From Candidatus Binatia bacterium (GTDB lineage: Bacteria > Desulfobacterota > Binatia > UBA12015), in contig JAIEPK010000142.1 of the NCBI GenBank assembly GCA_019749875.1, forward strand, positions 1 to 40,578: 40,578 bases of DNA, written 5' to 3'. This document shows, piece after piece, positions 3,801-32,853 of this stretch. The notes beneath the pieces were generated by a model. That model had not been told where the DNA came from. It ran no database searches and saw nothing but the letters and a program-made list of their open reading frames with translations. The stretch's first letter is position 1, and each line of letters opens with the position of its first letter. Both the position numbers and the translations under genes were made by a program.

Positions 3801-4458
3801 GCCGACACCGACCGAGGTGCCGACGCCCGAGCCGACGGCCAGCCCGACCCCGACGACGCTGCCGACGGGGACGCCGACACCGACGTCGACGCCCACCTCG
3901 ACGCCGACGTCGACCGTGGTGCCGACGGCCACGCCGACCTCCGCGGTCGCCTTCTGCGCGCCGCAGCCGATCGGCGGCTGCGCGGCCTCCGCGAAGGGCA
4001 CGATCAAGCTCACCAGCAACGGTGATCCGAAGAAGAGCAAGCTGGTGTTCCAGTGGATCAAGGGCACCGCGACGCTCGCGCAGTACGGTGATCCGATCGG
4101 TGGTGACGCCAGCTACGCGTTCTGCGTCTACGGCGATGATCAGCTGCTGATGAAGCCGCTGGTGACCGGCGACGGCCTCTGGAAGGCCGTCAAGCCGGGC
4201 CTCAAGTACCGCAACAAGTCGACCAACGCCGCGGGCATCGCCTCGGTCGACCTCCTGCAGGGCACGGGCAAGGCCAAGATCGCGCTGGTCGCCCGCGGCA
4301 CCAAGCTCGTCGCGCCGACCGTGCCGCTCGCGGCGGCGACCGACGTCCGGGTCCAGGTGGTCAAGAACCCGGCGAGCGGTCCGGAGTGCTGGGAAGCGCG
4401 CTTCACGGCGCCGTTCAAGAAGAACAAGGCGCCGACGTTCAGCGACGTCCTGCCGTGA
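883..4458 (+). CDS. Large secreted modular protein with phytase-like esterase domain (1191 aa)
   Basis: Start: ATG at 883 after GAGAGGAG with good spacing. Residues 1-32 form a Sec signal peptide ending in AGAA. Residues about 33-370 are a module also found at the front of the next protein ([26 protein letters not shown]). Residues 371-440 are a Pro-Thr linker. Residues about 443-520 resemble a cadherin/VCBS-type Ig repeat ([27 protein letters not shown]). Residues about 525-940 match the esterase-like activity of phytase family ([25 protein letters not shown]), whose members are secreted beta-propeller-like proteins. A second Pro-Thr linker (945-1022) leads to a C-terminal module with four conserved Cys (1023-1191), also shared with the next protein. 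Likely exported and surface-linked or released; phosphate-ester hydrolysis is inferred from the family only. A hairpin at 4463-4497 ends the gene. Confidence 0.88.
1996..2196 (+). repeat. Pro-Thr codon repeat (linker)
   Basis: Degenerate tandem CCG-ACG/ACC codons encode a TPTP/ETPQP linker between the N-terminal module and the Ig-like repeat. Such repeats act as flexible extended spacers and are prone to length change by slippage. Confidence 0.8.
3721..3945 (+). repeat. Pro-Thr codon repeat (second linker)
   Basis: A second tandem Pro-Thr-Glu/Ser codon tract separates the phytase-like domain from the four-Cys C-terminal module. Confidence 0.8.
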
Positions 4459-4462
4459 CCGT

Positions 4463-4497
4463 GGCGGGCGGTGTCGCGCTCTGCGGCACCGCCCGCC
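4463..4497 (+). terminator. Perfect 11-bp GC-rich hairpin
   Basis: GGCGGGCGGTG (4463-4473) pairs exactly with CACCGCCCGCC (4487-4497) around a 13-base loop, 5 bases after the stop of the 1191-aa gene. There is no T-run. It lies between two genes in the same direction, so read-through to the 4552 gene may be reduced rather than abolished. Confidence 0.6.
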
Positions 4498-4551
4498 CGA
4501 CGTCTCCGACGGCGACGATCTCGCCGCGACGAACTCGAGAGGAGCACTCCC

Positions 4552-7500
4552 ATGAGCCGACCGGCGCAGACCGCTACCCGTCCACGCATCGCGATGCTCG
4601 CCGCGATGACGCTGCTGTGCAGCGTCGCGGTGGCCTCGCCCGCGAACGCGGCACCGTTCGCGAGCGGCAACGTCGTCGTCTACCGCGTCGGCAGCGGGAT
4701 CGGCAGCCTCGTGAACACCGGCAGCCCCGTGTTCCTCGACGAGTACACGACCGCGGGCGCGCTGGTGCAGTCGATCCCGTTACCGACGGCGGCGAGCGGC
4801 GCGAACAAGCAGCTCATCGCGAGCGGCACCGCGACCTCGGAAGGCTTGCTCACACGATCGAGCGACGGCACCAAGCTCCTGCTCTCCGGCTACGCGACCA
4901 ATCCCGGCGGTGCGACGTCGCTGTCGACGACGTCGGGGGCGACGGTGCCGCGCACCGTCGGCGTGGTCGATGCGCTCGGCAACGTCGACACGTCGCGCGC
5001 GCTGACCGACTTCGCGACGAGCAACACACCGCGCAGCCTCGCGAGCGTCGACGGCGGCGGTGTGTGGGTCGCGGGCGGTGCGGGCGGCGTGCGCTACAGC
5101 GGGTCGACGAGCGACACGACGTCGTCCGACCTGACGAGCGGCACGCTCGCCAACGTCCGCCACCTGCAGATCTTCGGCGGCCAGCTTTATCTCTCGAGCG
5201 GGAGCGGGACGAACACGTTCCGTGGCGTCGACGTCGTCGGGACCGGGCTGCCGACGTCCGGTGCGCAGACGGTGACGCGACTGGCCGGCTTGACGGACGC
5301 GAGCAACCCGAGCACCTACGGCTTCTTCCTCGCGGACCTCGACGCGGGTGTCGCCGGCTTCGACACGCTGTACGTCGCCGACGACGGCGCCGGCGCTCTG
5401 ACGAAGTTCTCGCTCGTCGGCGGCACGTGGGTCGCGAACGGCACCGTCGGCGTCGACACCGACGACTACCGCGGCCTCGCTGCCACGGTGTCCGGAACGA
5501 CCGTGACGCTCTACGCGACGCGCAAGGCCGGCAGCGGCGCGACGGGTGGCGGCGAGCTGGTCACGTTGACCGATGCCAGCGGCTACGGCGGTGCGTTCGC
5601 CGGCACGCCGAGCGTGCTCGCGACGGCCGCGACGAACACCGCCTTCCGCGGCGTCGCACTCGCGCCGGAGGGCGCCGGTCCGACGCCGACGCCCAGCCCC
5701 GCTGGAACACCGACGCCGACCCCGCTGCCGACCGAAACCCCCGGTCCCACGCCGACCCCCACGGCGAGCCCGGTCCCGACGCCGACGCCGAGCGCGACCC
5801 CGCTGCGCCAGGCCGCGGCGCGCCGTGCCCTGCTGCCCGGCGATCTGCCGACCGGCACCAGCGTCCAGGGACGCGTCGGCGACTACCTGCTGCAGAACGA
5901 CTTCATCCGCGTCGTCATCGACGACATCCCGAACGCGCACGGCTTCGCCGCGACCGGCGGCAACATCATCGACGCCGCGACCGCGACCGGTGAGGATCGC
6001 TTCGCGTCGATGTTCACCTACTTCGACAACAGCTTTGGCCAGCAGGCGCTGTACGACACCATCGAGGTCGTGAACGCGGGCGGCGGCGCGAACGTCGCGC
6101 ACATCCGTGTATTGGGGGCGAGCTCCATCGACTCCGAGGTCGCGGTCGTCACCGACTACCTGCTCGGACCGACCGATCTCGCCGTCACGGTGATCACGGA
6201 GCTGACCAACAACGGCGATGCGCCGGTGACCCAGCTGCAGGTCGGCGACGCGATCCAGTGGGGGCTCACGACCCACTTCGCTCCGGGCTGGAAGAACAAC
6301 AATCGCAACATCCCCGGCGACGGCCACGACATCGGCGGAACGGGACTCGACGCCGCCTGGCTCGCGAGCGACGGCGAGAACGCGTCGTACGGCTATGCCG
6401 CGCCGAGCGGGCTGCTCGACGTCTCGAACGGCTCGTCGTGGACGGATGCCAACGTCGCCTACCTCGACATCCCGGCGGGCGGCGGCAAGGGTTCCTACAC
6501 GCGCTTCTTCATCGTCGGCAGCGGCGACGTCGCCTCGGTGTCGGATGCCGCGCTCGAGCTGCGTGGCGCGACGGTCGGCACGCTGTCGGGCGTCGTTCGC
6601 GAGACCGGCACCAACCTGCCCGTCGCGGGTGCGACGGTCGCGATCACGCGCACGCAGTGCCTCGGCACGAGCGGCGCGGAGTCGTACACGCTCGCGACGA
6701 CGCGCGCCGACGGCAGCTACACCGCCGATCTCGAGCCGGGGTCGTATCGGGTGCTGGTGCAGGCGGTGGGTCGCAGCGGCTCGTCATGCCAGACGGTGAG
6801 CGTCGCAGCGAACGGCGCGACGACGCTCAGCCCGACCGTCGGCCAGCAGGGCGTCCTCGCCTGGAACGTGACGGACACGAACGGCCAGCCGCTGCCGGCC
6901 AAGGTCTCGGTGCTCTACGATCCGCTGACCGCGGATCGTCAGGGGCCCGAGCTCGGCGACTGGCACACGCTCGTCGGTGGCTACTCCGTTCTGTCGGCGT
7001 CGGGCACGGGCTCGGCGGCGCTGCCGCCGGGTGCGTACCAGGTGTGGATCTCGCGCGGCATCGAGTACGACACGTCGGTGCAGTCGGTCGTCGTGCCGGC
7101 GGGCGGCACGGTGAACGTCAACGCGATGCTCACGCGCGTCGTCGACACCACCGGCTACCTGTCCGCCGACATGCACGTGCACGCGCAGAACTCGGCCGAC
7201 TCCGGCATCACGTTCGAGACGCGCGCCCGCGAGGCCGCGGCCGAAGGGCTCGAGATCGTGGTGCCGACCGATCACAACTTCAACTCGGACATGCAGTCGG
7301 CGATCACCTCGACCGGCCTCGGCGCGTGGGTCGCGACGCTGCCCGGCGACGAGGTCACGACCAACGAGTGGGGCCACTTCAACGGCTACCCGCTCACGGT
7401 GAACCCGGCCGACCTCACGCACGGCGGCGCGCTGCTGCCGAGGGGCCTCACGCCGGGGCAGCTCTTCGCGACGCTGCGCACCGATCCGCGCGGGCCGGTC

Positions 7501-10344
7501 GTGCAGGTCAATCACCCGCGTGCCGGCGGCATCGGCTACTTCGACCTGACGGCGTTCAACCCCGTCTCGGGGACGTCGGCGAACCCCGACTTCTCGCTCG
7601 CGTTCGATGCGATCGAGGTCTTCAACGGCAAGCGTCTCTCGCAGCTGCCGACGGTGCTGAACGACTGGTACCGGCTGCTGAACCGCGCCAAGCGGGTCAC
7701 CGGTGTGGGCAACACGGACACGCACATCGTGTTCTCGCAGGAGCTCGGCTACCCGCGGAACTTCGTCGCGGTCGGCACCGACGATCCGGCGACGCTCTCC
7801 GAGGCGACGTTCAAGAGCGCGCTCAAGGGCCAGCAGTCGCTGTTCACCAACGGCCCCTTCGTCGAGCTGAAGGTCGACGGGGCCCCGATCGGTGCGCAGA
7901 TCTCCAACGGCAGCGGCACGGTGAACGCGGCGGTGCGCATTCAAGCGCCGACGTGGATCACGGTCGACACGCTCGACATCGTCGTCAACGGCAACGTCGT
8001 GCAGACCGTGAGCGTCCCGACCACCGGCAACGCGCTGCGCCTCGACGCGACCTACCCGCTGCAGATCACGGCCGACAGCTGGATCGCCGTGCAAGTGAAG
8101 GGCGGCGACTGCCGCGTCGACTCATCGAACAAGTGCTTGACCGGCAACTGCCCGGGCCGCATGGATCCGATCATCCCGCCGCAGTACGGCACCGACCCGG
8201 TCTGTCCGTACGCGCACACCAACCCGGTCTTCGTCGACTACGACGGCAACGGGCAGTTCGACGCGCCCGGCAACGCCGGCGTCAACGTGCAGCCGATCTC
8301 GGCGATCCGGACGGTCGACGCGAACAAGGTGAGCACGCTGCTCGACCAGGTGGTCACGGTGCGCGGCACGGTGACCGTGCCGTCGTACGCGCTCGATCAC
8401 CGCAACAACCTGGTCTACTTGCAGGACGACAGCATCGACACCGCCAACAAGCGCTCGGGAGGCATCGCGCTCTTCCAGAGCAGCCTGATCTCGCCGATCC
8501 TCGACGCCGGTGACGAGATCGAGGTGACCGGAACGATGTCGATGTTCAACGGGCTCACCGAGCTCGCGAGCCCGTCGACCACCGTGCTGCACAGGGGTGG
8601 TCGCGTACCCGACCCGATTCCGCTCACGATCGCGCAGCTGCGCAACGTCGCGAACTCCGAGCAGTGGGAAGGGATGCTGGTGCGCGTGAACGGCCTCACG
8701 ATCACCGGTGGAACCTGGCCGGCCTTCGGCAGCGACGCGAGCATCACCGTCAAGGACTCCTCGACCAGCTCGACCAGCACGCTGCGCGTCGACTCCGACA
8801 CCGACATCGACGGGACGCCGGCGCCGTCGCAGCCGTTCGACCTCATCGCCGTGGTGGGCCAGTTCGACTTCTCGGCGCCGTACGATGGATTCTACCAGCT
8901 GATGCCGCGCAGCCGCGCCGACATCATCGAGGCGGCGAGCCCGGTCGCGATCGTCAACGGGCCCGGCACGTCGAGCGTGACGTCCTGCAGTGCGACCGTC
9001 TCCTGGTACACGACCAAGCCGAGCGACACCCGCATCGACTACGGCACGACGACGACGTACGGCTCCGTTCTCACGGATCCGACGCAGGTCAGCTCGCACC
9101 TCGTTACGCTCGCGGGTCTGCCGTCGGGCACGACGATCCACTACAAGGTGACGTCGGGCGGCGTCTCGTCGCCGGACGTGGTGTTCAACACCGCGAGCTC
9201 GCCGACGCCGTCGATCACGTTCGGGCCGGAGGTCAGCGTGATCGACGCGACCACCGCACAGGTCCGCTGGCAGACCACGGTGCCGACGATCGGCTCGATC
9301 GAGTACGGCCTCGACGGCTCGTACGGCGCGGTGCAGAGCGGGGCGACGGCGCAGACGGTCCACCTCGTCACGCTGACCGGGCTCCGTCCCGGCGCGACGT
9401 ACCACTACCGGGTCGGTGACGCGGCCAGCGCGTGCGGCGGCGGCACGGGCTCGAGCGGGGACGCGACGTTCCGGACGCCGCAGGTGACGGGCTGCCCGGG
9501 CATCGCGATCATCCCGCCGTCGCTGCTCGCCGGCACGCCGAACGTGCCGTACGCGCAGCAGCTGACGGCGCAGGGCGGCACGGCGCCGCACGCGTTCTCG
9601 CTGATCGGAGGGGCGCTGCCCGATGGCTTGACGCTGCATTCCGAAGGGCTGCTCGATGGTGTGCCGACGGTGGCCGGGAGCTTCTCCGTCGTGGTCGGTG
9701 TGACGGACGCGAACGGATGCAACGGCAGCCGGGCGTATCAGCTGAGCACGCTTCCGTCGGCGACGCCGACGCCCGTACCGACCGCCACTCCGATCGCGAC
9801 GCCGACGCCGGCGCCGACTGCTTCCGCGAGCACCGCGTTCTGCGCGCCCGCGCCCGTCCTCGGCTGCGTACAGCCGGCGAAGCGCTCGATCCTGATCAGC
9901 AACTCCGGCACGCCGAAGAAGAGCCGCTTCGCCTTCAAGTGGACGAAGGGGACGGCCACGATCGGTCAGTACGGCGATCCGATCGTCGGCGGCACCAGCT
10001 ACGCGCTCTGCGTGTACAAGGACGACCAGCTGATCATGCAGCCGGTCGTCACCGGTGACGGATCGTGGAGCGGTCTGCCGAAGAAGCTGCGCTACAACAA
10101 CAAGGCGACCAACGTCGACGGCATCAAGCTCGTCGTGCTCAACCCGGGCACCGACAAGGCGAGCATCGTCGTCAACGGCCAGGGCGTGAATCTGGACGTC
10201 CCGTCGATTCCGCTCGCGCCGTCGTCGAGCGTGACGGTCCAGCTGGTGAAGAACCCGGGCAGCGGTCCCGAATGCTGGGAGGCGACGTTCGTGCCGCCCT
10301 TCAAGAAGGACAAGGCGCCGCAGTTCAACGATCGCGAGCCGTGA
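4552..10344 (+). CDS. Giant secreted modular protein with PHP-type metal phosphoesterase domain (1930 aa)
   Basis: Start: ATG at 4552 after GAGAGGAG; the longer open frame to 4471 lacks a good site. Signal peptide 1-34. Residues about 35-372 repeat the N-terminal module of the preceding protein. A Pro-Thr linker (375-417) follows, then a domain of unknown type, then a carboxypeptidase-regulatory-like beta-sandwich (about 674-763). A PHP-type domain has the full metal-ligand set: H875/H877 (HVH), D907/H908 (TDHN), E934 (GDE), H988 (NHP) and D1056/H1058 (DTH). Residues about 1247-1463 look like an OB-fold region (VTVRGTV). Two fibronectin-III/purple-phosphatase-N-like repeats (1464-1643), a He_PIG Ig repeat (1647-1733), a short linker and the shared four-Cys module (1762-1930) complete it. 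Function: exported hydrolase, probably on phosphoesters; substrate unknown. The stop overlaps the next start (GTGA). Confidence 0.88.
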   Translation: MSRPAQTATRPRIAMLAAMTLLCSVAVASPANAAPFASGNVVVYRVGSGIGSLVNTGSPVFLDEYTTAGALVQSIPLPTAASGANKQLIASGTATSEGLLTRSSDGTKLLLSGYATNPGGATSLSTTSGATVPRTVGVVDALGNVDTSRALTDFATSNTPRSLASVDGGGVWVAGGAGGVRYSGSTSDTTSSDLTSGTLANVRHLQIFGGQLYLSSGSGTNTFRGVDVVGTGLPTSGAQTVTRLAGLTDASNPSTYGFFLADLDAGVAGFDTLYVADDGAGALTKFSLVGGTWVANGTVGVDTDDYRGLAATVSGTTVTLYATRKAGSGATGGGELVTLTDASGYGGAFAGTPSVLATAATNTAFRGVALAPEGAGPTPTPSPAGTPTPTPLPTETPGPTPTPTASPVPTPTPSATPLRQAAARRALLPGDLPTGTSVQGRVGDYLLQNDFIRVVIDDIPNAHGFAATGGNIIDAATATGEDRFASMFTYFDNSFGQQALYDTIEVVNAGGGANVAHIRVLGASSIDSEVAVVTDYLLGPTDLAVTVITELTNNGDAPVTQLQVGDAIQWGLTTHFAPGWKNNNRNIPGDGHDIGGTGLDAAWLASDGENASYGYAAPSGLLDVSNGSSWTDANVAYLDIPAGGGKGSYTRFFIVGSGDVASVSDAALELRGATVGTLSGVVRETGTNLPVAGATVAITRTQCLGTSGAESYTLATTRADGSYTADLEPGSYRVLVQAVGRSGSSCQTVSVAANGATTLSPTVGQQGVLAWNVTDTNGQPLPAKVSVLYDPLTADRQGPELGDWHTLVGGYSVLSASGTGSAALPPGAYQVWISRGIEYDTSVQSVVVPAGGTVNVNAMLTRVVDTTGYLSADMHVHAQNSADSGITFETRAREAAAEGLEIVVPTDHNFNSDMQSAITSTGLGAWVATLPGDEVTTNEWGHFNGYPLTVNPADLTHGGALLPRGLTPGQLFATLRTDPRGPVVQVNHPRAGGIGYFDLTAFNPVSGTSANPDFSLAFDAIEVFNGKRLSQLPTVLNDWYRLLNRAKRVTGVGNTDTHIVFSQELGYPRNFVAVGTDDPATLSEATFKSALKGQQSLFTNGPFVELKVDGAPIGAQISNGSGTVNAAVRIQAPTWITVDTLDIVVNGNVVQTVSVPTTGNALRLDATYPLQITADSWIAVQVKGGDCRVDSSNKCLTGNCPGRMDPIIPPQYGTDPVCPYAHTNPVFVDYDGNGQFDAPGNAGVNVQPISAIRTVDANKVSTLLDQVVTVRGTVTVPSYALDHRNNLVYLQDDSIDTANKRSGGIALFQSSLISPILDAGDEIEVTGTMSMFNGLTELASPSTTVLHRGGRVPDPIPLTIAQLRNVANSEQWEGMLVRVNGLTITGGTWPAFGSDASITVKDSSTSSTSTLRVDSDTDIDGTPAPSQPFDLIAVVGQFDFSAPYDGFYQLMPRSRADIIEAASPVAIVNGPGTSSVTSCSATVSWYTTKPSDTRIDYGTTTTYGSVLTDPTQVSSHLVTLAGLPSGTTIHYKVTSGGVSSPDVVFNTASSPTPSITFGPEVSVIDATTAQVRWQTTVPTIGSIEYGLDGSYGAVQSGATAQTVHLVTLTGLRPGATYHYRVGDAASACGGGTGSSGDATFRTPQVTGCPGIAIIPPSLLAGTPNVPYAQQLTAQGGTAPHAFSLIGGALPDGLTLHSEGLLDGVPTVAGSFSVVVGVTDANGCNGSRAYQLSTLPSATPTPVPTATPIATPTPAPTASASTAFCAPAPVLGCVQPAKRSILISNSGTPKKSRFAFKWTKGTATIGQYGDPIVGGTSYALCVYKDDQLIMQPVVTGDGSWSGLPKKLRYNNKATNVDGIKLVVLNPGTDKASIVVNGQGVNLDVPSIPLAPSSSVTVQLVKNPGSGPECWEATFVPPFKKDKAPQFNDREP

Positions 10345-14100: not shown

Positions 14101-16011
14101 TCAACGGGGGGTCGCGACGAACGCGGGCGCAGGGCTGCTCGTCCGCGTCCCGGACGTCTCCTCGGTCGCCATGCCATGCAGCGAGACGGGATCGATCTGG
14201 TTCCGGTACCGAGGTGTGGGGAGCGCCATCCGGTCGTCGCGTGCCCACGTGACCATCTGCATGCCCAGCACGTCCGGCGAGTCTGGCGTCAGCTTGTCTT
14301 GCCACCAGAACTCGAAGAGCGCCCGCTCCGCCGTCAGGTCGACGATGCCGTAGCCGTGGTCGACCCATTCGATGAACTGCATGTTCGGATTGAGCCCCGC
14401 GAGCAGCGATTCGAGCGTGCGTGCACCGGCGACCTGCGCGGCGAACGACCAGGCTTGATTCGAGTGCTTGACGAGCTCGTCCGCGCCGCCGCGCCCCATG
14501 GACGACGGCGCGAACTCCACCGCCACGGAGCCGGCGCGCGAGTTCCAGTCCGACGTGTTGCCGGTCGTCGCGTGAATCCAGCCGGCCCGTTCGTTCTCGG
14601 GTGTCGAGCCGTTCCGCGGATTTCGCAGCAGAGCCCCGGGCTCGTAGTCGGGCACCACGTCCAGGCTCTCGATGACGTCGGAGCCGAGGTTTCCGTGGGC
14701 GTCCCCGGAGACAAAGATCGTCCCGTCGACCGCGACACCGTCCGGTCCGTCACCACGCAGGAACTCGCACAGCGCAGCTCGCTCGCCCGGGTAGTCTGCC
14801 CAGCGCGAGATGCCGAGCTTCGGCAGGCCGGACGAGGCGGGCACGTCTGCCGGTGAAAACCACGCTTGGTTGTTCACCACGCGCCAGGTGACCTCCGCCT
14901 GGTGGCTCGTGCGCAGGCTGCGCGTGATCCACTCGAACTGCGGCCGTCCATAGAGCGTCGGCGTGCCGGTCGGGAGATGGCCCGCGTCGAGCGTGAGCCC
15001 GTGCCCCGGAAGACCGATCTGCGTATCGACGCCGAACACGTCCGCCAACGGCCCGTACGGCAGGTGCCGGTAGACGAGCCGCGTGTCCTCCGGCACCGGA
15101 TAGCTGCCGTCGTCGACGAGAAGGAACTTGCCGGATCCGTCCGCGCGGACCGGGCGCGACGGCGTCCATTCCCAGAAGGCCTGCGTCGTCTGCTCGAGCG
15201 TGGTCATGCTCTTCTGTCCGTCGTAGGGCGTCGCCAGCTCGTTGCCGTAGTCCTCGTCGATGTCGTGGTTGTCCCACACGATGAACCACGGATGCTGCTG
15301 ATGCGCCGAGAGCAGGTTCGGATCTGAGCGCCACAGAGCGTAACGACGACGCAGCTCGGCGAGGTCGAGCCAGTCGCGGTAGTCGGGGAGAGCGGTGTCG
15401 TCGTCTCCGTTCCGGGCGCGTACCAGCTCGTCCTCGTCGGGGTAGTCGTAGATGTAGTCGCCGCAGTGGATCACCAGGTCGAGGTCGTTCCGCTGCGCGA
15501 GGTTTCCGAGCCCGCTCCAGTAGCTGCTCCAGTAGCTCGAGCACGAGAGCACCGCGAAGCGCAGGTTGTCGACCGCCGACGCGGGCGCCGTTCGCGTGCG
15601 ACCGATGATGCTCGTCTGCCCCAGTGCCGAGAAGCGATAGTGGTAGGTCGTCGCCGGCTCCAGACCGACGACGTCGACCTTGACGGTCCAGTCGCGTGCG
15701 GCGATGGCGTCCTGCGCGCCGCGCGCGACGATCTGCTGCAGATCGGGATCGCGGGCGACCTCCCAGGTGACCCGCACGGGGCTTTCGCTCGGATCGACGT
15801 GCGTGACTCTCGTCCAGAGGATCACACGGTCGGCCAGCGGATCACCGGAGGCGACGCCGTGCGCGAACGGCAGCGGCAGCCCGAGCGGAAAGTCGGCCGG
15901 TGCCGTGAGCGTATCCTCGGACGCGGCGTCGCCGCACGCGTTCAAGGACACCGCGGCGATGCCGATGCCCAGGGACTTCAGGAAGTGGCGTCTGTCGAGT
16001 GGTGGAGCCAT
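14101..16011 (-). CDS. phoD: PhoD-family alkaline phosphatase/phosphodiesterase, Tat-exported (636 aa)
   Basis: Start: ATG at 16011 gives a Tat leader with twin Arg at 7-8 (RRHFLKSL), a hydrophobic stretch and LNAC, so the protein may be lipidated as well as Tat-exported. A fibronectin-like PhoD N-terminal domain (about 50-150; ATTYHYRF) precedes the metallophosphatase domain. Metal-site motifs are D185 (HCGDYIYDY), W246-D250 (WDNHD) and D437/H439 (GDAHGN); the SC near 165 fits the Cys ligand of Fe/Ca-type PhoD enzymes. Length is near or above the usual 500-600 for the family. It cleaves phosphomono- and diesters outside the cytoplasm, typically under phosphate limitation; no Pho-box-like direct repeats were recognised upstream. 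An ATG 54 bases further up is possible but not needed. Confidence 0.9.
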   Translation of the reverse strand: MAPPLDRRHFLKSLGIGIAAVSLNACGDAASEDTLTAPADFPLGLPLPFAHGVASGDPLADRVILWTRVTHVDPSESPVRVTWEVARDPDLQQIVARGAQDAIAARDWTVKVDVVGLEPATTYHYRFSALGQTSIIGRTRTAPASAVDNLRFAVLSCSSYWSSYWSGLGNLAQRNDLDLVIHCGDYIYDYPDEDELVRARNGDDDTALPDYRDWLDLAELRRRYALWRSDPNLLSAHQQHPWFIVWDNHDIDEDYGNELATPYDGQKSMTTLEQTTQAFWEWTPSRPVRADGSGKFLLVDDGSYPVPEDTRLVYRHLPYGPLADVFGVDTQIGLPGHGLTLDAGHLPTGTPTLYGRPQFEWITRSLRTSHQAEVTWRVVNNQAWFSPADVPASSGLPKLGISRWADYPGERAALCEFLRGDGPDGVAVDGTIFVSGDAHGNLGSDVIESLDVVPDYEPGALLRNPRNGSTPENERAGWIHATTGNTSDWNSRAGSVAVEFAPSSMGRGGADELVKHSNQAWSFAAQVAGARTLESLLAGLNPNMQFIEWVDHGYGIVDLTAERALFEFWWQDKLTPDSPDVLGMQMVTWARDDRMALPTPRYRNQIDPVSLHGMATEETSGTRTSSPAPAFVATPR

Positions 16012-16419
16012 GGTCTCGTGTCCGTGTCTGCCGCGTGTCGTCGTCGCGCGTTGCCGGTCGGTCATTCGATGGACCGCCTGCAGGAGTCGATCGTTCCGTC
16101 CGCGTGCTCGAAAGGGCCGCAGGCGACCGCGGGCCGTCGGTCGCCTGCGGTACGTTTGCGCTCGGCCGTCGCACACGAAACCGGATGGTGGTGACACGGA
16201 GGCTCGCCCTCGATGAAGTGAACGTGAATCCCGACGACGGCTCTCCCTTTCCCGCAGCCGTCGATCCTTGCCGTGGAGTGCTCCTTGACCAGCGGTCCTG
16301 CGACGTCCGAGGTCCGGGGGAGAGCGCAGCCGCGCCCCTACGCGCCGTCACCTCGGCCGGCAACGGCGTCTTCATCGTCGCACCGCGAGGCCGTCATCGT
16401 CGCCCGCTATCGACGAGGG
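16012..16419. other. Region upstream of phoD, no supported gene
   Basis: It holds the 5' region of the minus-strand PhoD gene. Open frames on both strands lack ribosome binding sites and read as shadow sequence. No recognisable promoter or palindrome was found. Confidence 0.35.
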
Positions 16420-22761: not shown

Positions 22762-23170
22762 GGCGTGATCCTGTCCCGCACACCTGGTGGTGCGCGGTAT
22801 CCCGAGCGACGTTCGCTGCCGATCGCGAGCTGGCTGGTGCTCATCGCCCGCCGGCGCCGCTGTCGCGGCGGGAGGACAGGTCCCGCATCCGCGGCGGCAG
22901 CCGGACGCGCGACAGCCGAGCCGTGCAAGGACGCGCAGCGCGAAGTGGAACGCTTTACCAAGCGGGCCCGTCCTGGAGTGCGTAGGCCATCGTGATGGGG
23001 CGGGGTTTCGCCGGAAGCCGGGCCATCGGCTCCCGTCAGCCAGCGGCACGCGTCCTGCACGGGGTGACGCGATCCAACCGATCGAGAGTCGCCGTCGCGA
23101 CCGAGCCACGACCTGCGCCGATGTCCGCGCGGTGGTGATGGTCGCGTCGCCGAGGAGGAGGACCGTGTCG
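22762..23170. other. Divergent intergenic region, no gene seen
   Basis: It lies between the DUF72 remnant and the plus-strand gene at 23171. Open frames on both strands are low-complexity Arg/Ala-rich shadows. The only clear signal is the ribosome binding site of the next gene (AGGAGGAGG, 23153-23161). Confidence 0.4.
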
Positions 23171-23890
23171 ATGCGTGCTCTGTTTGCCGTTCTTGCCCTC
23201 GTCGTCGCCCCCGCCGTCGCGGGCGCCCAGAGCGGAGTCCAGTGGACTCGCGACCGCGCAGCCACCCTGGTGTCCAAGGACGTCGGTTCCGAGCGCTGGG
23301 CGATCACCTATCGGCTCGACGACGGCCACGTCACCGGCAACGTGTTCCGCACCGACGGCGGCCCGGCGTCGTTCATCGACTGCGACCGCACCTCGGTCAC
23401 CGACACGGACGCCACCTTCGACTGCTACGGCGCGGACGCGTGCGAAGCCGCACCCTGCCCGGAGTCGCAGTACACGCTGATCCGCAGCGGGATCTCGCTG
23501 CCGATCGCGTTCTTCTTCCCGCCGGGTGATGGTCCTGGCGGCACCGGGACGGTCGCGGACCTGCTCGGCACCTGGCGCTTCACGGTCGACGCGGTGGGCG
23601 GAGGAACGGACACGTTCACCTACCGCTTCGATCGCCTCGAGAACGACGATCGGCGTGCCGTCGGCGAAGAGGTCGGCAGCGGCGACGACATCACGGCGCG
23701 CGCTTCCGGCAACGACATCGAGATGTTCGAGCAGGAGAACGTCGATTGCCGGAAGTACGTCTTCCACTTCGACGGGCTCGATCGCCTCGAGGGCAAGCAG
23801 TCGTTCACGGCGCGCGTGCCGTTCTCGGACGATTGCGACACCTTCGAGATCGGCGACGACCACGCGTTCGTCGCGGAGCGCATCTCGTAG
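23171..23890 (+). CDS. Exported protein of unknown family (239 aa)
   Basis: ATG 23171 or GTG 23165 (two residues longer) can start the protein; both sit well behind AGGAGGAGG. Residues 1-19 form a typical signal peptide (ALFAVLALVVAPAVAGAQ). The mature part is rich in beta-strand pattern, with seven Cys (DCDRTS, FDCYG, CEAAPC, VDCRKY, DDCDTF) and two halves separated by a Gly-Pro-rich stretch (about 115-125). LLGTWRFTVDAV in the second half recalls lipocalin-like folds, but that is weak. It converges on the DyP gene. Function unknown. Confidence 0.72.
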   Translation: MRALFAVLALVVAPAVAGAQSGVQWTRDRAATLVSKDVGSERWAITYRLDDGHVTGNVFRTDGGPASFIDCDRTSVTDTDATFDCYGADACEAAPCPESQYTLIRSGISLPIAFFFPPGDGPGGTGTVADLLGTWRFTVDAVGGGTDTFTYRFDRLENDDRRAVGEEVGSGDDITARASGNDIEMFEQENVDCRKYVFHFDGLDRLEGKQSFTARVPFSDDCDTFEIGDDHAFVAERIS

Positions 23891-23960: not shown

Positions 23961-24998
23961 TCAGATCAGCCCGCGCCCGCCGCGCAGATCGCCGATGCCG
24001 AGCGTGGACGGGACCTCGGCGGCAGGCGTCGTCGAATCCGTGGCGGTGGCGACGGCAGGAGCGTCCGCCGGCGCGTCGGCCAAGCCCTCCAGGACGTCGA
24101 GCGAGGGCGCGAAGAAGTTCGTGCCGCTCACCGGCGTCGTGAAGTCGAGCAGGCGATCGTAGACGCCGTCCGCGTCGGCGACGTACATCCGCACGAGCAT
24201 CTCCTCGGTCACCGAGAGATCGCGCGCGTAGGCGATGAAGTAGGTGCCGGACTCGGAGCTCGTCCCGAAGGCGCGGTTCTGGCGCAGGATCTTCTGCTCG
24301 GCGCCGTCGCGCGTGATCGTGGTCCGCGCCTTGTGGGCACTCGGGGGACACGCGGCGTCGTCGAGCTCGATGTCGTCGGCCTTGGTGCGTCCGATCGCCG
24401 CCTCCTGCTCTTCGGTCTTGCACGCGTCCCAGCGCGCGAAGTCGGTGACGTAGCGCTGCGTCGTGACGTAGCTGCCGCCCGCGTGCTCGGGATCCTCGTC
24501 GGCGACGATCACGAACTGCAGGCGCTCCTCGGTGCCGGGGTTCTCGGTGCCGTCGACGAAGCCGATCAGGTCGCGGCTGTCGAGATAGGCGAACGCGCGC
24601 GTCTCGTCGATCACGCCCACCGCGTCGCCGAGCTTGACGCGGATCACGCGCGCGAGCTCGTGGCAGAAGTCGGCGCGCTCGGCGCGGATGTGGAGCAGCA
24701 GATCGCCCGGCGTCGACGGCGCCGTGCGCGGACCGTCGGCGAGCTCGCGGAACGGGTGCAGCTGTGCGGGACGCGTGCCGCCGGGGACGAGGCGCTCCCA
24801 GGCGTCGGCGCCGATCGCGACGACGCAGGAGAGTGCCGCGCTCTCGTCGCGATGCCCGACGCTGCGCACCAGCGCCGGGACCGCGCTGCAGACGTCGCGG
24901 ACCCGCGCCGCAGCGTCGGCGCCGGGCCCGACGGACAGGGTGAGAAAGAGTGCGCTACGGCCTGGGCCGCCGAGGATCCCGTTCTGCAGTTGAGCCAT
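23961..24998 (-). CDS. DyP-type (YfeX-like) heme peroxidase with C-terminal encapsulin cargo-type peptide (345 aa)
   Basis: ATG 24998 gives the usual N-terminus for the family. The distal GxxDG motif is GFVDGTENP with D149; H222 (SAHK) fits the proximal heme ligand and R239 (ILRQN) the distal Arg, 17 residues later as in YfeX; FGTSSESGTYFIAYARD is also typical. After the domain ends near 304, an Ala/Pro/Thr-rich linker (about 305-331) leads to STLGIGDLRGGRG at 331-343. That matches the LGIG-x-L-[KR]-G peptides that load DyP enzymes into encapsulin shells. There is no export signal, so cytoplasmic. It oxidises dyes or porphyrin-like substrates with H2O2; the natural substrate is unknown. No encapsulin shell gene occurs in this window. 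Confidence 0.92.
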   Translation of the reverse strand: MAQLQNGILGGPGRSALFLTLSVGPGADAAARVRDVCSAVPALVRSVGHRDESAALSCVVAIGADAWERLVPGGTRPAQLHPFRELADGPRTAPSTPGDLLLHIRAERADFCHELARVIRVKLGDAVGVIDETRAFAYLDSRDLIGFVDGTENPGTEERLQFVIVADEDPEHAGGSYVTTQRYVTDFARWDACKTEEQEAAIGRTKADDIELDDAACPPSAHKARTTITRDGAEQKILRQNRAFGTSSESGTYFIAYARDLSVTEEMLVRMYVADADGVYDRLLDFTTPVSGTNFFAPSLDVLEGLADAPADAPAVATATDSTTPAAEVPSTLGIGDLRGGRGLI

Positions 24999-27794: not shown

Positions 27795-29183
27795 CTACTC
27801 GAGCCCAAGCGCCAGCGACAGGGTGTGGAAGAGCCCGGTCTGGTCGGTCACACCGACCACGTTCGCCGCGCGCGGGCCTTGCGCCGCGATGCGCACCTGC
27901 GTCCCGGTGTGGCTCTGCGAGCGGCCGTGCAGGTTGCTCGCGTAGCTCACGACCATCGGCTGCCCGTCGGCGGTGACGAGCGTCGCGATCGCACCCGGGC
28001 TGTGATCCGACGCCGACTGCGCCTCGACGATCTGGCTCGTGTGACCGTGGTCCGCGCTGACGACGATGAGGGTGTCGGGGTTCTTCGCCGCCCAGTCGAG
28101 CGCGACCTGGATCGCGCGGTCGAGCTCGACGGTCTCGCCGATCTGTCCGCAGGGGTTCTCGGCGTGGTCCTGCTTGTCGATCGACGCGCCCTCGACCTGG
28201 AGGAAGAAGCCGCGGTTCGCGGCCTTGTCACCCTTCACCTTCGCCGACAGCAGCTCGATCGCCCGCGCCGTCATGTCGGCCAGGTGCGGCTCGGTCGCGG
28301 CCCGTGCGGGATTCGACCGCGTGCAGGTGGTCGCGTCGGGGCCGGGGTACGGTGCCGCGCCCGGGCCCGTCCACTCGAGGCTCATGTTGCCCGTGGAGAA
28401 GAGGCCGAGCAGCTTGGTACCCGGCGACGCCGCGTCGAGGCCGGCCTGGTCGGTCACGACGTCGTAGCCGAGCGCTTGTGCCTGCTCGATCACCGTCTTG
28501 CCCGCGTACGGCCCACCCGTCACCGTCTGCGCGAAGCGCTGCCGGCCGCCGCCCAGGAGCACGTCGATGCCGTGCTCGACGGTCTGCTCCGCGATCGAGC
28601 CCAGCCCGCCCGCCTGCTTGGTCTCGTTCGGGCACGTCGCCATGTCGGCCGGGCCCTGGCAGCCGCGCAGGCTGACGTGTGCGTCGAGCACCGCCGGGGT
28701 GGCATCGGTGAGCTCCGCCGTGGTGACGTTGCCGGTCTTGAAGCCCGCCTGCTGCGCCTTCTCGAGGATGGTCGTCAGCGGAGCGAGCGTCACCGGATCG
28801 ACCGACACCGCGTTGTTGTACGTCTTGTGGCCGGTCGCCCAGCCGGTGCCGGACGCGGCGGAATCGGTGACGTAGTCGGGGACGTCGCTGGTGCCCTTCT
28901 TCACCGCGTACGTCGTGTACGCGCCGGTGAGCGGCAGCCCGTCCATTGCGAGCCTGCCCGCAGCGCCCTTCTCGTAGTTGCGCGCGATGGTGATCTCGGA
29001 ATCGCCCATGCCGTCGCCGATGAACAGGATCACGTTCTTCGCGTGCTTCTTCGCGACGATCGCGCGTCGCACGTCGGCGCTGCGGTCGCCGTTCGCCGCG
29101 CCGTGCGCGGTGGTCGTCAATCCCAGGAAGCCCAGGGCGATCGTCGTCGCTCCCAGGTGCGTCAGCCGTCGTTGCATCCTCAT
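27795..29183 (-). CDS. phoA: PhoA-type alkaline phosphatase, exported (462 aa)
   Basis: ATG 29183 follows AGGAG; residues 1-27 form a signal peptide. The active-site set of the E. coli type is complete and nearly collinear with it: D57 (FIGDGMGD), S108 nucleophile (VTDSAAS), R173 (HVSLRGC), E331/D336/H340 (VEGASIDKQDH), D378/H379 (SADHGH) and a His near the end (SQSHTGT). K337 in SIDKQDH is the residue found in E. coli PhoA. It releases phosphate from monoesters in the periplasm or outside, using two Zn and one Mg. Length is normal (450-490). Usually induced by phosphate starvation; no Pho box was recognised upstream. The longer open frame to 29588 has no start signal. Confidence 0.95.
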   Translation of the reverse strand: MRMQRRLTHLGATTIALGFLGLTTTAHGAANGDRSADVRRAIVAKKHAKNVILFIGDGMGDSEITIARNYEKGAAGRLAMDGLPLTGAYTTYAVKKGTSDVPDYVTDSAASGTGWATGHKTYNNAVSVDPVTLAPLTTILEKAQQAGFKTGNVTTAELTDATPAVLDAHVSLRGCQGPADMATCPNETKQAGGLGSIAEQTVEHGIDVLLGGGRQRFAQTVTGGPYAGKTVIEQAQALGYDVVTDQAGLDAASPGTKLLGLFSTGNMSLEWTGPGAAPYPGPDATTCTRSNPARAATEPHLADMTARAIELLSAKVKGDKAANRGFFLQVEGASIDKQDHAENPCGQIGETVELDRAIQVALDWAAKNPDTLIVVSADHGHTSQIVEAQSASDHSPGAIATLVTADGQPMVVSYASNLHGRSQSHTGTQVRIAAQGPRAANVVGVTDQTGLFHTLSLALGLE

Positions 29184-29308
29184 GAAATCTCCTGCGCGTG
29201 TCGTCGGCAGTCGCCCTGATCGTCGACGTCGAGGATTCGACCTCGCCGGCGTCGCGCTCCAATCGGTCGTGCGACCGGGTGTCTCGCGAGCGTGGCTAGC
29301 GAAGCGGC

Positions 29309-29715
29309 ATGACCTGCCGGTTGCGCGGCGGTGAACGCTCGGTGGATCGCCGTGCTTGACGTCCCAGAGCACGGGAGATCGGCCGCGACGCGCTCGGCAT
29401 CGAGCTCGACGTGACCTCACCGTGCCGCGATCGACGCTCGAGCTGGGCGCGCGCGGCATCCGCGTGAACGCGATCGCGCCTGGCTCGACGCTCACCGGCA
29501 TGACGTCGCTCGCGTTCACGCGTCCGGCGATGGAGCAGGGCTTCCTGCGCCACACGCCGATGGGCCGCTTCGGACGCGGCGACGACATCGCGCAGGCGGT
29601 GCTCGGTCTCGCGTCACCGCTCTCGGCGTGGGTGACCGGTCACCTGCTCCTGGTGGACGGCGGCCCATCGCTGCGCGGCCTGCCGCTCTACCTCGAGAAC
29701 CTCACCGTCCCGTGA
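29309..29715 (+). pseudogene. Short-chain dehydrogenase/reductase remnant in three frames
   Basis: Three pieces of one SDR gene follow each other in different frames. About 29346-29366 reads IAVLDVPE (strand beta-2 with its Asp). About 29366-29419 reads AREIGRDALGIELDVTSP (strand beta-3). From about 29431 comes the C-terminal part (LGARGIRVNAIAPGSTLTGM; VTGHLLLVDGG) to TGA 29715. The Gly-rich cofactor loop, the NNAG strand and the catalytic Ser-Tyr-Lys segment are absent, so it cannot be a working enzyme. The start is uncertain; ATG 29309 (MTCRLRGG) may be the old N-terminus. The C-terminal piece alone is open from 29356 but has no start signal. Confidence 0.7.
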
Positions 29716-29841: not shown

Positions 29842-32800
29842 TCACGGAGCCCGGTGTCCGCGATCGACCACGTCGAGCGGTACGCACAGCTCCTCGGCGC
29901 CGCCGCGCAGCAACGACGTCACGCCGAAGCGGTTGTTGACGGTGAGGTCGAGCGGTTCGCCGGACGTCGCTCCGGAGCGGCCCGGCAGCTTGACGCCGCC
30001 GCGCGGGATCGACTGCACGGGACCGCTGGCGCGGATGCCGTAGCACGCGACGCTGGTCTGCGACCGGCCGAGCCCGTCACCGATGTCCGCCTCGATGCAC
30101 AGCGAATCGGGCACGTCGCGGATCGCGACGGTGTGCGTGCCGGACGCGTCGGTGTAGGTCGCGTCGACGAGGCGCGGCCGCGCCGGCCCGGACGGCGTGA
30201 CACGGTAGCAGGTGTACGCGTCGAACAGACCGGCGAGCGGCAGATCCGGCGTGGCGCCGGCGGCGCTGGCGGCTCCCGTCGGAACGAGAAGGCGCTCCAC
30301 GCTGCGCGTGTCGAGCGTGTGCGTGCCGATCTCGTCGCTCGCGACGATGCCCTGGCGGCGCGGGTTGCCGTCCTTCGAGCGCTGCGCGACCGGATACGAG
30401 AGCCACACCACGTCGTCGGGGCTGACCTCGCGCGACAGCAGCGCGCGCGGCTGGCCGAGCCGCAGCGTCACGGTCTCGATCCAGTCCGACGCGACCAGCG
30501 TCGACGCCGCCAGGCGCGGGCCGGGCGCGGGCGCCGCGCGGTAGCCGACCGCACGCGACAGGAACGCGGTGCACGCGGGCTCGCCCGCGGCGGTGGTCGC
30601 GACGCCGTCGGCGCGCGCGTTCGATGCCGTCGCGCAGTCGCCGAGCGCCGGCGCCACGATCGATCCGAAGGTGACCGTGTAGCCGACCTCGTTGACGCTG
30701 CCCGCACTCTGGCAGGTGAAGGTGCTCGTCGAGTCGTCGTAGGCGTAGGTGTAGGCGGTCGGGCAGCCCTGCTTCAGGAACACGAGCCAGGGCTGGGCGT
30801 GGTCGTTCCAGGCAGAGTTGTTGTGGTCACCGGCGCACGCGAGGCTCGCCGCCGTCGGCCAGAAGCTCGACAGCGGGGCCTTCGCGCTGGTCGCGCAGCC
30901 GCAGCAGTTGTCGCCGGTCGCGTTGCCGGTGTTGTAGCAGGACGCGGCGTTGGCTCCGGTGCAGCCGAACAGCTGCGACAGCGTGGTGTCGCCCGACTGT
31001 CCGTTCGTGAGCGACGCGCTGCAGTCGAGCGGTCCGTACTTCGTCGCCGGGTTGGCGCAGAAGTCGTTCGCCGCCCACCAGCCACGCAGCTTCGGCCCGC
31101 AGACCTTCATGTACTCCGTCTTGATGCCCGGGAAGAACTGCGTGCCGCAGTACGAGCCCAGCTTGCTGCCGGCGCAGTCGGACGCGTCGTCGCACTGACA
31201 GAAGCCGAGCTCCGGCCCGTCGTTGAACGCGGTCTGCTTGCACTTCCCGCCGCCCCAGTTCTCCGTGCAGTCCGAGTCCGTCTTGCAAGGGTAGAGGCAT
31301 GCGCCGTGCTGCGGAGCGGTGCAGTACGAGGTCTTGGGATTCGTCGGGTCGCTGCCGCTCGGACCGACGCACCCGGTCGGGTTGAAGTCGTTGCCGCACT
31401 GCTGGCCGTTGAACAGCAGCAGCGAGGTGTAGTCGCCGCCGCTCGACGACGGCGAGGCGGGGACGATCGGCTTGAAGTCCCACGAGCAGGCGTCGAGCTT
31501 GCCCGACGCGGTCGCGCTGCCCGCGCCCTGGCACCAGTAGTCGGCGTCCGCGCCGGGCGGCACGGTGGGCTGCGTCGGCGGGATCGGCTTCATCTCGACT
31601 GCGAGATTGACGCCGTCGATGATGGTCACGTCGTAGAAGTCCTTGTCGTTGCTCTGCAGCGTGAACTCCGCGAGCGTGAGCGGCTTGCTGCCGCCGTTCT
31701 CCGGCGGGCATGCGCCGTTCGGTGAGGCGAAGCAGTCCGCGGTCGCGCAGCTCGTGCCGTCGTCCTTGCAGCCGGTGCGCGCGAACACGCCGCCGCTCCA
31801 CCAGACCGGTGCGATCTTGCCGTTCAGGTTCGCCGGCTGCGGCAGGCAGAAGGTCGCCTTCTCGCCCTGGGCGAGCCGGTACGGGTTGGCCGGCGTGCCG
31901 TCGCGCTTCGGCGCGGGCAGCGTCCAGAAGCAGACGTCGCCGTCGCCGGTTTGCGCGCACGTCGCCTCCTCGCCGGCCGCGCCGCAGTCCGCCCCGCCGT
32001 CGTTGCACTTGCAGATGAGCGCGCCCGCGCCGTTGCGCGCGGCGCTCGAGCCCGTCGGGCACGAGATCGTACCGTCGAGGGCGTCGCTGCCGCAGCTGCA
32101 CCGCGTGAGATCTCCCGACACGTGCTCGACGCTGCTGAGACAGCTCGTCTGCGGCGTGATGCAGCTCGGCACGACCGCGCCGCCCTTGCCGCCGATCCAG
32201 ATCACCTCGCTCGCTTGATTGACGAGCTCGAGCGTCCGGCACTGGCCGGGCTTCGGCGACGGACCGGCGCTCGAGCTCGGGCCGGGTGTCGGCGTGGCGC
32301 CGCTCGGCGCCGGAGTCGGCGTCGCACCGCTGGGAACGGGTGTCGGCGTCGCACCGCCGCTCGGCGTCGGGGCAGGTGTGCCGGTCGGCGCCGGCGTCGC
32401 CGTGGGCGTGCCGCCGCCCACCTCGCAGATCTTCGTTCCGTCGCAGCCGGCGGCGGTGAAGCACTGCGTGAACTGGCACTCGTTGGTGTTCGGCGTGATG
32501 CAGTCGCCGGTCGCCTCGCAGCAGAACTTGCCGTCGCCGCAGCCCGCGCACTTGCTGTCCGCGTCGGTGCACGGGGCCGGCTGCGGCACCGGCGTCGTGC
32601 TGCCGACGACGCACAGGTCCGCGATCCGGCAGCTGCCGTTCTGCGAGCACGTCGTCGATGAGCACTGGTCGACGCCGCCGATGCACGCACCGCTGAGCTT
32701 GCAGCAGGTGGCCCCCGGCGAGCAGCTCCGGCACTGCGTGTCGTCCGCGGTGCAGGTCGACGGGTCGTCCTGACCGGATGCGGGCGCCGGCGCGAGCGCG

Positions 32801-32853
32801 AGCCCCGAGCAGATCAGCAGGGACAGCAGGACAGGCAGGATCAAGCGTCTCAT
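29842..32853 (-). CDS. Large secreted Cys-rich protein with a thaumatin-like domain (1003 aa)
   Basis: ATG 32853 follows GAGGA and overlaps the TGA of the upstream 107-aa ORF. Signal peptide about 1-27. Residues 30-150 hold two Cys-rich repeats (SPGATCCKLSGACIGG; GDGKFCCEATGDCITP). A Pro-Thr-Ser linker (about 150-205) precedes a thaumatin-type domain at about 208-715. Its family signs are LELVNQASEVIWIGG, WWSGGVFARTGC, CATADC, LAEFTL, DFYDVTIIDGVNLA and, at its end, CPTAYTYAYDDSTSTFTCQ. The domain is about twice the plant length because of Cys-rich inserts. Residues about 716-1003 form a further beta-rich region of unknown type. Thaumatin-like proteins bind or cut beta-glucans or act on membranes; here the role is unknown, though fungal or algal glucan is a reasonable target. 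Confidence 0.85.
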   Translation of the reverse strand: MRRLILPVLLSLLICSGLALAPAPASGQDDPSTCTADDTQCRSCSPGATCCKLSGACIGGVDQCSSTTCSQNGSCRIADLCVVGSTTPVPQPAPCTDADSKCAGCGDGKFCCEATGDCITPNTNECQFTQCFTAAGCDGTKICEVGGGTPTATPAPTGTPAPTPSGGATPTPVPSGATPTPAPSGATPTPGPSSSAGPSPKPGQCRTLELVNQASEVIWIGGKGGAVVPSCITPQTSCLSSVEHVSGDLTRCSCGSDALDGTISCPTGSSAARNGAGALICKCNDGGADCGAAGEEATCAQTGDGDVCFWTLPAPKRDGTPANPYRLAQGEKATFCLPQPANLNGKIAPVWWSGGVFARTGCKDDGTSCATADCFASPNGACPPENGGSKPLTLAEFTLQSNDKDFYDVTIIDGVNLAVEMKPIPPTQPTVPPGADADYWCQGAGSATASGKLDACSWDFKPIVPASPSSSGGDYTSLLLFNGQQCGNDFNPTGCVGPSGSDPTNPKTSYCTAPQHGACLYPCKTDSDCTENWGGGKCKQTAFNDGPELGFCQCDDASDCAGSKLGSYCGTQFFPGIKTEYMKVCGPKLRGWWAANDFCANPATKYGPLDCSASLTNGQSGDTTLSQLFGCTGANAASCYNTGNATGDNCCGCATSAKAPLSSFWPTAASLACAGDHNNSAWNDHAQPWLVFLKQGCPTAYTYAYDDSTSTFTCQSAGSVNEVGYTVTFGSIVAPALGDCATASNARADGVATTAAGEPACTAFLSRAVGYRAAPAPGPRLAASTLVASDWIETVTLRLGQPRALLSREVSPDDVVWLSYPVAQRSKDGNPRRQGIVASDEIGTHTLDTRSVERLLVPTGAASAAGATPDLPLAGLFDAYTCYRVTPSGPARPRLVDATYTDASGTHTVAIRDVPDSLCIEADIGDGLGRSQTSVACYGIRASGPVQSIPRGGVKLPGRSGATSGEPLDLTVNNRFGVTSLLRGGAEELCVPLDVVDRGHRAP
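32222..32420 (-). repeat. Pro-Thr-Ser codon repeat (linker of the thaumatin-domain protein)
   Basis: Near-identical tandem units read SGATPTP-x-P on the minus strand and link the Cys-rich N-terminal repeats to the thaumatin-like domain. Confidence 0.75.

What the first reader, a model, noticed from the sequence alone, without database searches (positions are those of the whole stretch)
23961..24082. DyP peroxidase carries an encapsulin cargo-type tail, but no shell gene is nearby
The last 15 residues, after an Ala/Pro/Thr linker, contain LGIGDLRGGRG. Encapsulin-loaded DyP enzymes of actinobacteria and proteobacteria end in LGIG-x-L-[KR]-G after the same kind of linker. In most known family 1 systems the shell gene is adjacent; here the flanks are a subtilisin-like protease and an unknown exported protein. 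Either the shell is encoded elsewhere in this genome, or the tail is a relic, or a different compartment uses it. That the peptide is a working cargo signal is inferred.
Basis: partly seen in the sequence, partly recalled or inferred. Interest (0 to 1): 0.72.

Follow-up and report, generated by a model that had tools for sequence, protein, structure and literature searches.

The report
Peroxidase tagged for a distant nanocompartment
The peroxidase carries a standard C-terminal address tag for an encapsulin protein shell; the shell gene is elsewhere in the same genome beside an iron-storage enzyme bearing almost the same tag, so the peroxidase is most likely a second, separately encoded cargo of a known kind of bacterial nanocompartment.

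Summary
A DypB-like (P-class) DyP peroxidase (window 23961-24998, minus strand) ends in an Ala/Pro/Thr linker plus LGIGDLRGGRGLI, a textbook family 1 encapsulin targeting peptide. No shell gene is nearby, but the genome has one family 1 shell on another contig (C370). It overlaps an encapsulated-ferritin (EncFtn) gene ending ALGIGSLKGGSSL. These two proteins are the only ones found in the genome with the motif at a C-terminus. The shell keeps the known peptide-binding residues. The same glycogen synthase-shell-EncFtn order lies in a 963-kb contig of a family member, so C370 is native.

Across 148 genomes of the class, all 9 intact tailed DyPs sit in genomes with a shell. Two members of the tailed clade have lost the tail, one by a TAG just before a still-readable LGIGSLR, and neither genome has a detected shell. 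Untailed DyPs form a separate clade.

Best reading: the DyP is an unlinked secondary cargo of an EncFtn shell, a role reversal of M. tuberculosis, where DyP is the core cargo and a ferritin is secondary. Two relatives show the same arrangement. It is a new member of a known kind. Loading itself was not tested.

The parts
23961..24998 (-). DyP peroxidase gene, P-class/DypB-like, 345 aa (P0001)
   Evidence: residues D149, H222, R239 and N241 align with the DypB haem-site residues of 3QNR
24003..24074 (-). Ala/Pro/Thr-rich linker between the enzyme fold and the targeting peptide
   Evidence: sequence; outside Pfam Dyp_perox_C
23982..24002 (-). Core of the targeting peptide, LGIGDLR (L333, I335, G336, L338, R339)
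   Evidence: these positions correspond to L340, I342, G343, L345 and K346 of the Klebsiella DyP peptide, each shown essential for loading (PMC10960027)
25066..26781 (-). Upstream neighbour, subtilase (not part of the system)
   Evidence: Peptidase_S8; no homologue in the few kb around the DyP of G077 or G083 or on the 12.4-kb G009 contig
22787..23890 (+). Downstream convergent neighbour of unknown function (not part of the system)
   Evidence: no Pfam match; no homologue near the DyPs of the relatives

Best explanation
The DyP is an unlinked secondary cargo of the genome's single family 1 encapsulin. The shell operon (EncFtn gene overlapping the shell gene, contig C370) makes a 60-subunit-type shell. 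EncFtn (core cargo) and DyP (secondary cargo) both dock by LGIG[S/D]L[K/R] tails into the same groove on the inner face of the shell as it assembles. The ferroxidase stores iron; the peroxidase probably consumes peroxide inside or next to the iron-loading compartment. Shown here: both tails, the shell, the conserved pocket residues, and tail-shell co-occurrence. Inferred: binding, co-packaging in one particle, T=1 size, and the physiological coupling.
For: Family 1 shell in the same genome, over both curated cut-offs. EncFtn directly upstream, over both cut-offs, ending ALGIGSLKGGSSL, with a GTGA stop/start overlap. The shell contig is native: same gene order in G001 on a 963-kb contig, 81% shell identity, and GC 70.8% against 70.4% for the window. 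Only two proteins in the genome were found ending in the motif. All residue positions essential in the Klebsiella alanine scan are kept. The shell keeps R34, D38, T217 and D229, with I230 replaced by Leu. Tail and shell co-occur: 9 of 9 intact tailed DyPs have a shell in the genome; 0 of 2 tail-cut members and 1 of 28 untailed genomes have one (Fisher p 5e-8 over all, 0.018 inside the tailed clade). DyP and EncFtn-shell are also unlinked in G077 (DyP on contig C1 at 154 kb, shell on C2 at 573 kb) and G083 (C6 and C2).
Against: No binding or expression data. The closest relatives of the shell lack the DyP (G001, G012), and the same-genus genome G013 has neither shell nor DyP, so the partnership is not obligatory. 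The shell lies outside the DyP-operon shell clade, so its fit to a DyP hexamer is inferred. The tail has Asp where most peptides have Ser. The genomes are related, so the Fisher values overstate independence.
Confidence: 0.86

Rival explanations
1. The tail is a relic: the DyP once sat in a shell operon and now works free in the cytosol.
For: The gene is unlinked and has no conserved neighbours. Relatives show decay does happen: G009 has a TAG before the tail and no detected shell; G051 has neither tail nor shell.
Against: Here the shell is present and the tail is intact. The related unlinked DyPs of G077 and G083 also keep intact tails in genomes with shells, while shell-less members of the clade have lost theirs.
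Confidence: 0.07
2. The shell contig C370 is a contaminant of the assembly and the DyP's own shell is missing from it.
For: The genome is a 680-contig assembly with 3.6% contamination, and C370 is only 8.4 kb.
Against: Same gene order and 81% identity in the same-family genome G001, and matching GC. The same unlinked pairing occurs in the 100%-complete genomes G077 and G083, which have only about 20 and 10 contigs.
Confidence: 0.04
3. The DyP is loaded into the genome's family 2 (SrpI-like, cNMP-domain) shell instead.
For: Such a shell exists on contig C128.
Against: Family 2 cargo is proposed to load through large N-terminal domains (PMC8346489); this DyP has no N-terminal extension and carries a family 1 peptide. 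The C128 neighbours are a PLP-dependent cysteine-synthase-like enzyme and a hexapeptide transferase, pointing to sulfur metabolism.
Confidence: 0.02

Closest known systems
Mycobacterium tuberculosis Cfp29 encapsulin (DyP core cargo; BfrB and FolB secondary cargos)
   Same: One family 1 shell for a DyP and a ferritin-type protein, one of the two encoded away from the shell (PMC8229669); shell homologous (7P1T/7BOJ).
   Different: Roles reversed: here the ferritin-like protein is operonic and the DyP is distant. In M. tuberculosis the ferritin is a bacterioferritin with a different tag.
Myxococcus xanthus EncA with EncB (core), EncC and EncD (secondary, unlinked)
   Same: Ferritin-like core cargo in the operon and secondary cargos elsewhere in the genome, with similar C-terminal peptides (PMC8229669; PMC10960027).
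   Different: No DyP among the cargos named; the M. xanthus shell is a distant relative (E 2e-13).
Haliangium ochraceum / Rhodospirillum rubrum EncFtn encapsulins
   Same: EncFtn gene next to a family 1 shell; H. ochraceum tail GSLGIGSLR (PMC10960027); EncFtn assignment by PF22277 and TIGR04535.
   Different: No DyP partner is described for them in the passages read here.
Rhodococcus jostii DypB and Klebsiella pneumoniae DyP encapsulins
   Same: Closest solved DyP (3QNR, E 1e-94) and closest solved shell (8U50, E 1e-81); same peptide logic.
   Different: In DyP-operon systems the DyP gene precedes its shell; those shells, with the Klebsiella one, form their own clade apart from this genome's shell.

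Membership tests
Family 1 encapsulin system (shell) | HK97-fold family 1 shell protein in the genome | tested here: met
   PF04454 E 1e-88; NCBIfam NF041155 encap_f1, 323 bits against cut-off 100
Family 1 encapsulin cargo | C-terminal targeting peptide after a flexible Ala/Pro/Gly-rich linker | tested here: met
   LGIGDLR with the five essential positions kept
Family 1 encapsulin core cargo | Shell gene adjacent | tested here: not met
   Shell is on contig C370, the DyP on C667; hence secondary, not core, cargo
Family 1 encapsulin secondary cargo | Targeting-peptide protein encoded outside the shell operon of a genome that has a shell | tested here: met
   definition from PMC8229669
Family 1 encapsulin secondary cargo | Physical encapsulation in the shell | not testable with these tools
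   needs co-expression and purification
DyP peroxidase, P-class/DypB-like | Dyp_perox fold with haem-site Asp, axial His and distal Arg | tested here: met
   PF20628, PF04261 and TIGR01413; D149, H222, R239 and N241 align with DypB
EncFtn core cargo (partner) | EncFtn domain plus targeting peptide next to the shell gene | tested here: met
   PF22277 123.8 bits (cut-off 27), TIGR04535 130.6 bits (cut-off 125); tail ALGIGSLKGGSSL

The most novel reading that the evidence does not exclude
A DyP peroxidase and an EncFtn ferroxidase share one shell particle in this bacterial class: a DyP lineage that left the DyP-type shell was re-adopted as a mobile satellite of EncFtn-type shells, joining iron storage with peroxide removal. 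In relatives that lost the shell, the tag decays while the enzyme is kept.
Probability: 0.4. Interest if true: 0.52.

Novelty: new member of a known kind. Interest (0 to 1): 0.36.

Why it matters
Secondary cargos of encapsulins are known but rarely examined; a 2021 review says natural encapsulation of secondary cargos had been shown only for M. xanthus (PMC8229669). This class offers natural comparisons: one DyP lineage that is unlinked and tailed where an EncFtn shell exists, and de-tailed where the shell is gone. That makes cargo-shell partner switching and the need for an iron-plus-peroxide compartment testable.

Tried and rejected
The named-genome scan for DyP relatives returned only Arthrobacter sp. 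UM1 (tailed) and a Rokubacteria MAG (untailed), so the class could not be named; a guess (Binatota) gave no encapsulin papers. A wider phylum sample (395 genomes, strict E-value) found no further DyP of this lineage. Remains of the tail or shell in G051 were sought downstream and not found. The G009 TAG could be a sequencing or assembly error; reads were not available. A conserved DyP neighbourhood was looked for and not found. Structure prediction was not used, because homology to solved DyP and shell structures is strong and a shell-peptide complex cannot be predicted with the single-chain tool.

Full report
OBSERVATION. The ORF 23961-24998 on the minus strand encodes a 345-residue DyP peroxidase. 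Pfam and NCBIfam place the enzyme in residues 5-301. The nearest solved structure is DypB (3QNR, E 1.2e-94). Residues D149, H222, R239 and N241 align with the DypB haem-site residues (their roles in DypB are from general knowledge). After the fold comes an Ala/Pro/Thr-rich linker and the end STLGIGDLRGGRGLI. From composition, the chance of L-G-I-G-x-L-[KR] in the last 20 residues is about 3e-6.

THE SHELL EXISTS. A search of the own genome with the family 1 shell model gives one hit, contig C370 3383-4135, E 3e-88. It passes the NCBIfam equivalog model for family 1 encapsulins (323 bits, cut-off 100). Directly upstream, with a GTGA stop/start overlap, lies a 130-aa EncFtn (PF22277, TIGR04535) ending in ALGIGSLKGGSSL. 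A degenerate motif search of the genome gave 15 sites. Only the EncFtn and the DyP have the motif near the end of a recognised protein; the one other near-terminal site is a 37-residue chance frame.

IS THE SHELL CONTIG NATIVE? The genome is a 680-contig assembly, so contamination had to be considered. In G001, of the same family, the same glycogen synthase-shell-EncFtn order lies on a 963-kb contig with 81% shell identity. GC is 70.8% for C370 and 70.4% for the window. The contig belongs.

DO PEPTIDE AND POCKET MATCH? In the Klebsiella DyP encapsulin, alanine scanning showed that peptide residues L340, I342, G343, L345 and K346 are each required, and that shell residues R34, D229 and I230 matter most while D38 forms a salt bridge (PMC10960027). 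The DyP tail has L333, I335, G336, L338 and R339 at those places. The C370 shell has R34, D38, T217 and D229, with Leu for I230. The one unusual feature is Asp in place of Ser at the fifth position of LGIGSL. Binding remains an inference.

CO-OCCURRENCE IN THE CLASS. In 148 genomes of the class, 21 have a family 1 shell and 53 have a DyP match. I read the C-termini of the close DyP relatives. A tree of 41 DyPs splits into a tailed clade (12 rows) and an untailed clade (29 rows), with 100/100 support. All nine genomes of the class with an intact tail have a shell. Two members of the tailed clade lack an intact tail, and neither genome has a detected shell. Of 28 genomes of the class in the untailed clade only one (G052) has a shell, and that shell has its own fragment of a tailed-type DyP beside it. 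Fisher p is 5e-8 over all and 0.018 inside the tailed clade; relatedness makes these optimistic.

TWO ARRANGEMENTS. Six genomes of one family (G037, G040, G044, G062, G066, G070) have the textbook DyP-shell operon. The window's DyP forms a separate subclade (100/99) with those of G009, G077 and G083. In G077 and G083, complete assemblies of about 20 and 10 contigs, the DyP is intact, ends in LGIGSLRPR or LPIGSLRAGR, and lies on a different contig from the shell. There too the shell is paired with a tagged EncFtn. The shells of the DyP-operon type, with the Klebsiella shell, form one clade (100/100), and the EncFtn-type shells of G000, G077 and G083 lie outside it. So this DyP lineage accompanies EncFtn-type shells. 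Its neighbourhoods share no other gene between genomes, within the few kb compared.

A NATURAL LOSS. G009, of the same family as the window's genome, has neither a detected shell nor EncFtn. Its DyP (67% identical) has a TAG right after the fold, followed by a still-open EEANAAEVAADSEGGDGTLGIGSLRAPR and a stop. The likeliest reading is a recent loss of the tag after loss of the shell; a base error in that assembly, or a shell in a missing part of it (96% complete), is not excluded. G051 is a second case: tailed clade, no tail, no shell.

HOW IT MOST LIKELY WORKS. The shell and EncFtn are co-translated and assemble. The DyP, made elsewhere, is captured by the same luminal groove. Secondary cargos not encoded in the shell operon are an accepted feature of family 1 (PMC8229669), with M. 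xanthus EncC/EncD and M. tuberculosis BfrB/FolB as examples. Here the DyP is secondary and the ferritin-like protein is core, the reverse of M. tuberculosis. A peroxidase inside or beside a ferroxidase compartment could remove peroxide during iron loading; that is inference. Whether one particle holds both cargos is unknown.

VERDICT. The finding is real and its main question is answered: the shell is elsewhere in the genome. It is a new member of a known kind, with a modestly interesting swap of core and secondary roles and a useful natural loss series.

Noticed in passing
L143 (G000:C128) 2357-4024: The same genome also encodes a family 2 encapsulin with a cyclic-nucleotide-binding domain (PF19307 and PF00027), next to a PLP-dependent cysteine-synthase-like gene and a hexapeptide-transferase gene, so this organism has two different encapsulin systems.
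   Followed up: partly
L027 2370-2520 (G009:C170): In-frame TAG between the DyP fold and an intact targeting peptide in a genome without a detected shell; possible snapshot of tag loss, or an assembly error.
   Followed up: partly
L025 (G012:C198:6239-6919): G012 has a second, very divergent family 1 shell-like protein (57.9 bits to PF04454) besides its EncFtn-type shell.
   Followed up: no
window 4471-10344, 14101-16197, 27795-29588: The window holds a PhoD-like phosphatase, a classical alkaline phosphatase, and a very large protein with phosphatase N-terminal and carboxypeptidase-regulatory-like domains, suggesting a phosphorus-scavenging neighbourhood.
   Followed up: no
window 29842-32853: A 1003-aa bacterial protein with two thaumatin-family matches (PF00314), an unusual domain in bacteria.
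   Followed up: no
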